Source: Candidatus Nitrososphaera evergladensis SR1 (GTDB lineage: Archaea; Thermoproteota; Nitrososphaeria; Nitrososphaerales; Nitrososphaeraceae). From it: 64,000 bases of DNA. Below are positions 17,885 through 36,310 of this stretch, in pieces. The notes beneath the pieces were generated by a model. That model worked only from the letters and a program-made list of their open reading frames with translations, ran no database searches and had not been told where the DNA came from. Location: positions 2,480,001 through 2,544,000 of the forward strand of contig NZ_CP007174.1 in assembly GCF_000730285.1 (NCBI RefSeq), given 5' to 3'. The stretch's first letter is position 1. The number at the start of each line of letters is the position of its first letter. Made by a program: the position numbers and the translations under genes.

Positions 17885-18709
17885 CTATTCTATCCCTTCT
17901 TCCCCTTCTTCTTCGGGCTCTTCAGAAGGGGCCTCTGCCTTTTTCTGCACCTTCCTTGCAAAGACCAAGTAGGTGGTGTGCCCTATCATGCGCATCGACG
18001 GCCTTGTCATGCCCTCGCGCGCCTCCATCGTGCGTATCAAGAGCTCTATCGACTCGATGTCGGCATAGCCGCTCTTTTTCAGCTCTGTAGCCGTCTTCTC
18101 TATCTGGTTCATGGTCGGGCAGATGGCGACAAACGCGCCGCTTCCCTTCAGCGCGTCGTGCACCTGATCAAGCACCGTCCAGGGGTCGCCAAGGTCGACG
18201 ATGGCGATGTCTGCCTCCCTCACGTCGACGCCTTCGTGCGGGTCGTGGTGGTTCAATGTCACATAGTCGGCCATGCCGGCCTTTTCCAGATTGCGCTTTG
18301 CTATCTCCATAAAGTCGGGATTGACGTCAAAACTGTAAATGTGGCCTTCCGGCTTGACGATGCTTGCAAAAAAAGTCGCCGCAGCTGCGCTCCCCGTGCC
18401 TATCTCCAGTATCTTGGAGCCGTTTTTCATGCCGGTGCGCGCGGCTATGAAGCCAAGGTCCTTTGGATAGACGATTTGCGTCCTGCGCTCTGACTTCATG
18501 ATAAAGTCGTGGGTCGTAGGCTCGATCAGAAAGACGACCTTTCCTTCCGTCGTCCTTATCACGGACCCGTACTCCATGCCTATCGTGGCGCCAACGTCAA
18601 TGATCCCGAGGTGCGTGTGGATTTTCTTGTCAGGCGTCACCTTCGTCAGCCACTTTTTGCGCGACGTGTGAAACAAGAGTACGTACGAGCCTTCCTGGAT
18701 CTTCAACAA
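17885..18709 (-). CDS. trmI: tRNA (adenine-58-N1)-methyltransferase TrmI
   Basis: A 274-residue protein of the TrmI/Gcd14 family, which methylates A57/A58 in the tRNA T-loop with S-adenosylmethionine. The N-terminal beta domain (about residues 1-75) is followed by a Rossmann methyltransferase with KILEIGTGSAAAATFFA as the SAM loop, YSFDVNPDF as motif II and AIVDLGDPW as the catalytic-site region. A Glu-rich tail of about 15 residues ends the protein. It acts on tRNA in the cytoplasm, probably as a tetramer. Confidence 0.92.
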   Translation of the reverse strand: MLKIQEGSYVLLFHTSRKKWLTKVTPDKKIHTHLGIIDVGATIGMEYGSVIRTTEGKVVFLIEPTTHDFIMKSERRTQIVYPKDLGFIAARTGMKNGSKILEIGTGSAAAATFFASIVKPEGHIYSFDVNPDFMEIAKRNLEKAGMADYVTLNHHDPHEGVDVREADIAIVDLGDPWTVLDQVHDALKGSGAFVAICPTMNQIEKTATELKKSGYADIESIELLIRTMEAREGMTRPSMRMIGHTTYLVFARKVQKKAEAPSEEPEEEGEEGIE

Positions 18710-18737: not shown

Positions 18738-19964
18738 TCAATCTTCGGGGCTCAAGCCGAGGCTCTTTGCAAAAAGTGTTAGCTCGTCCATTGTCATGTC
18801 ATAAGCCCTTATTGTCACGAACAAGTCCGTCCTGTCCGCCCCCTTGCCCCACAGCTTTGCTTCTGCATAACCCGGATCCAAGCCTTCGTTTGCAATCAGG
18901 ACCGCATACCTGCCCGCTATATCCGGCCCGCTTTCAACTCGCCGATCTTCAGCCGGCGCAACATTGACCATGTTCTTTGCCAGATCCGCAGGCGAGTCGC
19001 CAAGCGCAAGGTCAGGGCACAATGCTACTGGGCATACAGCTATCTCGGTCCTATGGTAGTTTGAACCCAAATAATAGTCTGCATAGAGAGCCTCAAAGGC
19101 TCTCAGGTCTCCGGTCACGCGCATACCCCATTGCACCTGTGCCGGCGTGATTGTGAGAAGGTGCTTGCCGTACGTGCCGGCGGCAGGGAAGGGGAGGGCA
19201 TAGCCGGCGTTCCGGCTCGCTGCATCAAGCATTTCCCTGTTTGACAGGGTCAGTTCATCCTGCGACAGCCTGCGGCCCTGTCCCGGCGAGCCGTTGGCAG
19301 ATATGTCGGGCTTTTTGGCGGTGATGTATCCGTCCTTGTCGACTGAAAGGTCAAGCGTGGCAAGTGCAAGCGGCCCTGCGCTGCTTGGGACAGACGGGCT
19401 GGTCATTCCCATCGATGCGGCTCCTGCAAACGCAAGGCCGTCCCACGGCCTGTACCTGTCGCTGTGGCACGGATCCTCTATTGCCCACCTGCCGTCGTTT
19501 CCAAAGTATTTTATCAAGCAGCCGCTGGAGATGGCTACCGCGCTGTACGCACGAAGCGACGAAACATCGTCCTTTTGCCCGCCAAGCCACGCAGGCAGCC
19601 TGACCAGGTTGTAATGAGAGTAAGGCTCCGTCCTTGCCCAGAACTTGCGGACTTGATCTGCAGTAGTAGCGCTGGCAATCTTTTCCCGCACAAAATTGTC
19701 CATGTCTGCGCTGAACGGATTCAGGATTACGACAGAGCTGTTTGGCGGGATGTCGCCCATTTTCAGGTTGCGGGCAGTCCACGTTTCCTGCCCAAGGCTG
19801 TAATTGTAGCGCTGCTCAAACGCCACCACCCTTTTTTCTTCGCCCCGCGAGAGCGCGCTTGTGGTGAGGGCCGGCACAACTGACAGCGACACGGCAATGA
19901 GCGCCAGCGAGGCTGCGACTGCGGCTACAGCATAGACTGCAAACCTAGCGCCGGCCATAACCAA
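18738..19964 (-). CDS. membrane-anchored Rieske-fold protein lacking cluster ligands
   Basis: A 408-residue protein with an N-terminal membrane helix (about residues 8-30) and a region at 138-215 that follows the Rieske pattern: SAVAISSGCLIKYF, then AIEDPCHSDRYRPWDG, then PLALATLDLSVDKDGYI. Compared with bc1-type Rieske proteins, the two box-1 ligands are Ala144 and Ser146, and the first box-2 Cys is Asp164. Only the ligand His167 remains. The two disulfide cysteines, Cys149 and Cys166, are kept. It should therefore fold like a Rieske protein but not hold a 2Fe-2S cluster. The remaining 190 residues are unassigned. It may be a structural or regulatory relative of an electron-transfer subunit. 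Confidence 0.65.
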   Translation of the reverse strand: MVMAGARFAVYAVAAVAASLALIAVSLSVVPALTTSALSRGEEKRVVAFEQRYNYSLGQETWTARNLKMGDIPPNSSVVILNPFSADMDNFVREKIASATTADQVRKFWARTEPYSHYNLVRLPAWLGGQKDDVSSLRAYSAVAISSGCLIKYFGNDGRWAIEDPCHSDRYRPWDGLAFAGAASMGMTSPSVPSSAGPLALATLDLSVDKDGYITAKKPDISANGSPGQGRRLSQDELTLSNREMLDAASRNAGYALPFPAAGTYGKHLLTITPAQVQWGMRVTGDLRAFEALYADYYLGSNYHRTEIAVCPVALCPDLALGDSPADLAKNMVNVAPAEDRRVESGPDIAGRYAVLIANEGLDPGYAEAKLWGKGADRTDLFVTIRAYDMTMDELTLFAKSLGLSPED

Positions 19965-35875: not shown

Positions 35876-36310
35876 ATGAAAGAAGAAGCAAGCGTTCAGG
35901 GAAAATCAGTCGAGGTTGCAAGGATGCAAGAGATACCGGCAGGAAAGATAAAGCACGTCGAGGTTGATGGAAAAGAGATAGCGGTTGCCAACATTGACGG
36001 AAAATACTATGCCTTTGACGACAGGTGCGGCCACAGCAGCGCACGGCTTTCGATGGGGACGATAAATGGAAATGTCGTAACGTGCCCCTTCCACGGGGCG
36101 CAGTTTGACTGCACGACCGGAAGAAAAGTCAGGGATGCAAATACGGTTGCGCCGCCGACAGACGGGCTTCCAGACGTCTGGAAGAAGAACGTGGAGTATG
36201 CCTACAACATCCTATCGTACATAAAGACGTACGACCAGAAAACGTACGGCGTCACGGTCGAAGGAGACAGGATAAAGGTCAGCCTTTTGCCAGCGGCTGT
36301 TTCCCGGTGA
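35876..36310 (+). CDS. Rieske-type 2Fe-2S ferredoxin
   Basis: A 144-residue soluble Rieske protein with both boxes intact: CGHSS (ligands Cys and His) and CPFHGAQFD. The absence of a membrane helix and of box disulfide cysteines points to the NirD/ferredoxin-like branch, which passes electrons to oxygenases or reductases. The C-terminal 45 residues are an extension with VEYAYNILSYIKTYDQK. It is divergent from the RHH-like regulator. Confidence 0.88.
   Translation: MKEEASVQGKSVEVARMQEIPAGKIKHVEVDGKEIAVANIDGKYYAFDDRCGHSSARLSMGTINGNVVTCPFHGAQFDCTTGRKVRDANTVAPPTDGLPDVWKKNVEYAYNILSYIKTYDQKTYGVTVEGDRIKVSLLPAAVSR

What the first reader, a model, noticed from the sequence alone, without database searches (positions are those of the whole stretch)
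18738..19964. A Rieske-fold membrane protein that kept its disulfide but lost its iron-sulfur cluster ligands
Aligned with bc1-type Rieske proteins, the sequence SAVAISSGC...EDPCHSD puts Ala144 and Ser146 at the box-1 Cys and His ligands and Asp164 at the first box-2 Cys; only His167 remains. The two disulfide cysteines (Cys149, Cys166) and the following DKDGYI strand are preserved. Selection seems to have held the fold while the electron carrier was lost, which suggests a new structural, assembly or sensing role.
Basis: partly seen in the sequence, partly recalled or inferred. Interest (0 to 1): 0.75.

Follow-up and report, generated by a model that had tools for sequence, protein, structure and literature searches.

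The report
Rieske protein family without its cluster
Ammonia-oxidizing archaea carry a conserved family of membrane-anchored, probably outward-facing proteins descended from a respiratory iron-sulfur protein; the fold and its disulfide are kept, but the residues that hold the cluster and the export signal used for cofactor-loaded proteins are gone, so the part was probably reused for something other than carrying electrons.

Summary
The ORF at 18738-19964 (-) is a Rieske homologue lacking both box-1 ligands and the first box-2 Cys, with both disulfide cysteines kept. It is not a decaying gene. It belongs to a family found in three families of ammonia-oxidizing archaea. In 33 of 33 aligned members box 1 has neither ligand, box-2 Cys1 is Asp/Asn (one Glu), and both disulfide cysteines remain. 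His167, the one ligand left here, survives in only 7 of 33; A144 and S146 are not conserved.

Independent corollaries fit loss of the cofactor. Intact paralogues carry an SRRxFLK-type Tat signal (36/39; the other three ORFs seem mis-started or truncated), the family never does (0/35). Cytochrome b lies beside intact copies in 14/18 neighbourhoods, beside family members in 0/31. dN/dS is 0.24, and 0.19 in the Rieske part. Three genes in a related genus have Asp and Glu at the two Cys sites but keep both His, and branch between intact and ligandless proteins.

Most likely: a membrane-anchored, presumably Sec-exported, cluster-free Rieske fold used as a disulfide-pinned scaffold or recognition domain. 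The family and the loss are well supported; the function is inferred. Closest known precedent: NirD.

The parts
18738..19964 (-). Cluster-free Rieske-fold membrane protein gene (408 codons from TTG; probably 406 from ATG at 19958)
   Evidence: start by comparison with the orthologue L002/L051
19976..19983 (-). TATA-like box TATATTTT beginning 25 bases before the ATG, identical in the close orthologue; suggests a leaderless transcript
   Evidence: sequence; the leaderless reading is inference
19881..19949 (-). N-terminal membrane anchor (residues 6-28), no twin-arginine motif
   Evidence: helix in model, low confidence there; hydropathy peak 2.48 at residue 12 and nothing comparable later; Tat test
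19254..19634 (-). Rieske-fold domain, residues 111-237
   Evidence: hhalign to intact Rieske E 5e-31; Foldseek hits to Rieske proteins at E 1e-5; dN/dS 0.19
19518..19535 (-). Former box 1, AISSGC (144-149): ligand Cys and His replaced, disulfide Cys149 kept
19464..19475 (-). Former box 2, DPCH (164-167): ligand Cys replaced by Asp (D/N conserved in the family), disulfide Cys166 kept, His167 not conserved in the family
18741..19253 (-). C-terminal alpha/beta domain (residues 238-408), absent from the cytochrome b-linked Rieske proteins; fold not identified
17885..18709 (-). Neighbour 29 bases downstream on the same strand: TrmI/GCD14-type tRNA methyltransferase; this order is kept in the close relative only

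Best explanation
The gene encodes a member of a dedicated family in ammonia-oxidizing archaea, homologous to the Rieske subunit of their cytochrome b complex and most simply derived from it. Shown by sequence: homology to Rieske, loss of both box-1 ligands and box-2 Cys1, retention of both disulfide cysteines, an N-terminal membrane anchor, no Tat signal, an added C-terminal domain, and purifying selection. Inferred: no Rieske [2Fe-2S] cluster can be held, so the chain is threaded unfolded through Sec, the disulfide pins the two former cluster loops outside the cell, and the Rieske domain works as a rigid binding or scaffold module (protein-protein or surface recognition) rather than as an electron carrier.
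For: 33/33 ligandless members lack box-1 Cys, box-1 His and box-2 Cys1 and keep both disulfide Cys. Intact paralogues have an SRRxFLK-type Tat motif in 36/39 and the family in 0/35. Cytochrome b lies in 14 of 18 intact neighbourhoods and in none of 31 family neighbourhoods. dN/dS is 0.24 overall and 0.19 in the Rieske part. The family is one side of a supported branch even without the columns around the ligands. In Nitrosopumilaceae-like genomes 19 of 20 loci have a same-strand neighbour within about 15 bases, and 73 of 85 genes in those runs have an N-terminal hydrophobic segment, against 81 of 241 other ORFs nearby.
Against: No direct evidence of function, partner, expression or cofactor content. 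Distribution is patchy (about 33 of 221 near-complete genomes of the order, counted). The structure model has pLDDT 64 and low global TM-scores. No conserved neighbour points to a partner. The own-genome paralogue seems truncated and two Nitrosocaldus copies have broken frames.
Confidence: 0.62

Rival explanations
1. The former cluster site now holds another metal. Acidic residues stand where the Cys ligands were (Asp/Asn at box 2; Asp and Glu with both His kept in a Nitrosotalea-like subgroup), giving a possible mononuclear 2-His-2-carboxylate site in some members.
For: Three genes have DxH...EPCH with all four residues invariant and branch between intact and ligandless proteins. Box-2 Cys1 is D/N/E in all 33 others.
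Against: A fourth gene of that subgroup has Asn at both His sites. Box-1 positions vary freely in the main family and His167 is lost in 26 of 33. In the window protein only D164 and H167 of the old site could bind.
Confidence: 0.12
2. The conserved disulfide is a redox switch, and the protein senses oxidation state outside the cell.
For: Both cysteines are kept in every aligned member while the ligand positions beside them vary.
Against: The same disulfide is present in all the intact Rieske proteins, where it is structural (own knowledge); an outward-facing disulfide in an aerobe is likely to stay oxidized. No known signalling domain was recognised in family members.
Confidence: 0.1
3. Accessory or assembly subunit of a respiratory or ammonia-oxidation complex, comparable to the ligand-deficient ferredoxin of plant complex I.
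For: Homology to the cytochrome b-linked Rieske subunit. A ligand-deficient mitochondrial ferredoxin-like protein is needed for complex I supercomplexes in Arabidopsis (PMC10069907).
Against: Absent from most relatives that have the intact Rieske protein; never next to cytochrome b.
Confidence: 0.12
4. Decaying duplicate of the Rieske gene.
For: Ligands lost; the own-genome paralogue's similarity reads past a TAG and two Nitrosocaldus copies are split.
Against: dN/dS 0.24, loss shared across three families with box-2 Asp/Asn conserved, identical promoter-like motif in the orthologue, 35 invariant positions among nine divergent members.
Confidence: 0.03

Closest known systems
Rieske iron-sulfur protein of the archaeal cytochrome b complex (PF00355; the ~200 aa SRRDFLK...CLHLWC...CPCHGS proteins, two copies in this genome)
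   Same: Homologous over 143 columns at 39% identity, including RLPxxxGG, both disulfide cysteines and the glycine after box 2
   Different: No cluster ligands, no Tat signal, extra C-terminal domain, no cytochrome b neighbour, below Pfam detection
NirD, small subunit of assimilatory nitrite reductase (PF13806, Rieske_2)
   Same: Rieske fold without cluster ligands, kept in a living protein (own knowledge, not tested here)
   Different: Cytosolic enzyme subunit without membrane anchor (own knowledge); the window protein does not hit PF13806
Mitochondrial ferredoxin-like protein (mFDX-like) of plant complex I
   Same: Electron-carrier fold that lost Fe-S ligands and serves assembly of a complex (PMC10069907)
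   Different: Ferredoxin fold, not Rieske; a known complex I component
Rieske non-heme iron oxygenases (structure hits only)
   Same: The 50 listed Foldseek matches of the full model are all of this kind, E 1e-5 to 7e-4
   Different: Global TM 0.14-0.22 on the query; the C-terminal domain modelled alone has no significant match

Membership tests
Rieske [2Fe-2S] protein (PF00355) | Box 1 CxHxxC and box 2 CxxH cluster ligands | tested here: not met
   A144, S146, D164; 0 of 33 family members have the ligand set
Rieske [2Fe-2S] protein (PF00355) | Homologous Rieske domain with the two disulfide cysteines | tested here: met
   hhalign E 5e-31 to intact proteins; C149/C166 invariant
Rieske [2Fe-2S] protein (PF00355) | Score above the Pfam cut-off | tested here: not met
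   No hit at E 10; not among the 13 matches in its genome
Rieske [2Fe-2S] protein (PF00355) | Rieske three-dimensional fold | tested here: inconclusive
   Model pLDDT 64; Foldseek hits are Rieske oxygenases at E 1e-5 but with global TM 0.14-0.22
Rieske subunit of the cytochrome b complex | Adjacent cytochrome b gene | tested here: not met
   0 of 31 family neighbourhoods against 14 of 18 intact ones
Rieske subunit of the cytochrome b complex | Tat export signal | tested here: not met
   0 of 35 against 36 of 39
NirD / Rieske_2 (PF13806) | Match to PF13806 | tested here: not met
   No hit at E 10
NirD / Rieske_2 (PF13806) | Small subunit of a nitrite reductase, encoded beside the large subunit | not tested
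   No such gene was noticed among the neighbours listed, but no dedicated search was made

The most novel reading that the evidence does not exclude
The Rieske site was remodelled rather than simply lost: the Cys ligands turned to Asp and Glu first while both His stayed, giving a mononuclear metal site outside the cell in Nitrosotalea-like archaea, and other descendants such as the window protein dropped metal altogether and became surface modules, in some lineages within arrays of exported proteins.
Probability: 0.12. Interest if true: 0.75.

Novelty: new variant of a known kind. Interest (0 to 1): 0.52.

Why it matters
It shows an electron-transfer subunit of the central respiratory complex of ammonia-oxidizing archaea duplicated, stripped of its cofactor site and kept under selection for another use, with a plausible intermediate still present. 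The joint loss of ligands and Tat signal is a clean natural test of the idea that Tat export is kept because the cofactor is loaded first. It also explains a set of proteins that current family models miss.

Tried and rejected
Single-sequence Pfam, NCBIfam, PHROGs and PDB searches of the window protein gave nothing meaningful. Viral and plasmid collections: no relatives. C-terminal domain: a separate structure prediction and Foldseek gave no significant match; the compact ones (Tsi3, MTC28, MucB) are at E 0.15-0.5, so it is left unidentified. Pfam scans of 9, 14 and 3 family members: chance hits only. Conserved partner: gene order is kept only between the window and its closest relative; a neighbour with a Cys-less cupredoxin-like domain occurs at only about six loci. 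Literature: no held paper was found that describes cluster-less Rieske proteins in these archaea. Decay hypothesis: rejected on dN/dS and conservation.

Full report
What is there. The ORF 18738-19964 (-) has 408 codons from TTG. The close orthologue (78% identical) starts at the equivalent of Met3, and both genes share the motif GATATATTTTCT ahead of it, with TATATTTT beginning 25 bases before the ATG. The likely start is therefore the ATG at 19958. The protein has one N-terminal hydrophobic segment and no comparable one later, a Rieske-like domain (111-237) and a C-terminal domain (238-408). The genome is 2,954,373 bases in one contig, which fits the 2.95 Mb reported for Ca. Nitrososphaera evergladensis (PMC4084955); that identification is inference.

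Is it Rieske? The protein alone matches no family model and PF00355 misses it. Its relatives, found by whole-genome search, include short proteins of about 200 aa with CLHLWC...CPCHGS. Those hit PF00355 and solved Rieske proteins such as 1nyk and 3fou at E 2e-6. Profile-profile comparison of nine long proteins (A1) with twelve short ones (A3) gives E 5e-31 over 143 columns, 39% identity. Homology is therefore secure. The AlphaFold2 model is only moderate (pLDDT 64, pTM 0.66, nine sequences). The 50 listed Foldseek hits are all Rieske oxygenases at E 1e-5 to 7e-4, but with TM 0.14-0.22 on the query, so the model supports the fold only weakly.

What was lost and kept. Across 33 ligandless members the box-1 Cys is S/D/G/A, the box-1 His is never His, and box-2 Cys1 is D (22), N (10) or E (1). 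Both disulfide Cys are present in all 33, as are Y153, R172, D175 and G176. Box-2 His survives in 7. All 39 intact sequences keep every ligand, but that is how they were sorted, so this figure is a definition and not a test; what is informative is that members fall into two clean classes at these sites.

Independent tests. (i) Tat: an SRRxFLK-type motif is found in 36 of 39 intact and 0 of 35 ligandless N-termini; the three exceptions are ORFs whose start looks truncated or wrong. (ii) Operon: cytochrome b lies beside the gene in 14 of 18 intact neighbourhoods and in 0 of 31 ligandless ones. (iii) Selection: dN/dS is 0.24 for the whole gene and 0.19 for the Rieske part, similar to neighbours such as ArgS at 0.17. 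(iv) Phylogeny: the ligandless proteins are one side of a branch with support 100/99, and 98/91 when the regions around the ligands are removed.

Distribution. About 33 of 221 near-complete genomes have one, by my count of full-length matches, so it is an accessory trait. No relatives were found in the viral or plasmid collections. Other phyla were not searched systematically beyond one motif scan of 84,980 species genomes, which returned only relatives of this order; that motif would not catch every member.

An intermediate. Two genomes of one Nitrosopumilaceae-like genus carry three related genes with DIHxGC...EEPCHGD: both Cys ligands are replaced by acidic residues and both His are kept. 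With the four ligand columns left out of the tree, they branch between intact and ligandless proteins (98/91 and 99/83). They have no Tat signal and a different C-terminal domain. A fourth gene of the kind, in another genome, has Asn at both His sites, so the set is not rigidly conserved. This suggests that Cys was lost before His, but long branches and few columns (117) make the placement provisional.

Context. In the window the gene lies 29 bases upstream of a TrmI-type tRNA methyltransferase on the same strand; this order is kept in the close relative only. In the Nitrosopumilaceae-like genomes, 19 of 20 loci have a same-strand neighbour within about 15 bases; 73 of 85 genes in these runs have an N-terminal hydrophobic segment, against 81 of 241 other ORFs in the same stretches. 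The hydropathy test is crude, the comparison set contains spurious ORFs, and runs were defined by strand and spacing alone, so this is suggestive of exported-protein arrays, no more.

Mechanism. Shown: homology, fixed ligand loss, kept cysteine pair, absence of Tat signal, membrane anchor, purifying selection. Inferred: the disulfide itself, export by Sec, outward orientation, absence of a cluster, and a scaffold or recognition role. A working precedent for ligand loss with a structural role is the plant mFDX-like protein (PMC10069907); NirD is a cluster-less Rieske fold (own knowledge). The window protein belongs to neither.

Verdict.

Noticed in passing
L051:12288-13757(-), L096:497-1300(+), L101:5369-6793(+), L104:2419-3828(+), L111:5641-6837(+): Cupredoxin-like domains near some family members read YHGEPHPW or similar where plastocyanins have YxCxxHxxM, so the copper Cys seems replaced: a second redox fold with altered ligands in the same loci.
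   Followed up: partly
L031:4767-5795(+) (G000:C1:1739751-1740803): Second ligandless paralogue in the same genome, 342 aa, whose similarity continues past a TAG stop: possibly truncated.
   Followed up: partly
L064:270-1506, L065:7833-9140: Two Nitrosocaldus metagenome assemblies have the gene split over two ORFs, from frameshift or assembly error.
   Followed up: partly
L032:4814-5443(+): A second intact Rieske protein with Tat signal but no cytochrome b neighbour, with a counterpart in the close relative: an orphan Rieske.
   Followed up: no
window 35909-36130 (+): A normal Rieske ferredoxin domain (148 aa frame) lies elsewhere in the window; the genome has nine strong PF00355 matches.
   Followed up: no
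L098:15556-16428(-): Subgroup gene with DIN...EPCN: both former His ligands are Asn while the acidic residues stay.
   Followed up: partly
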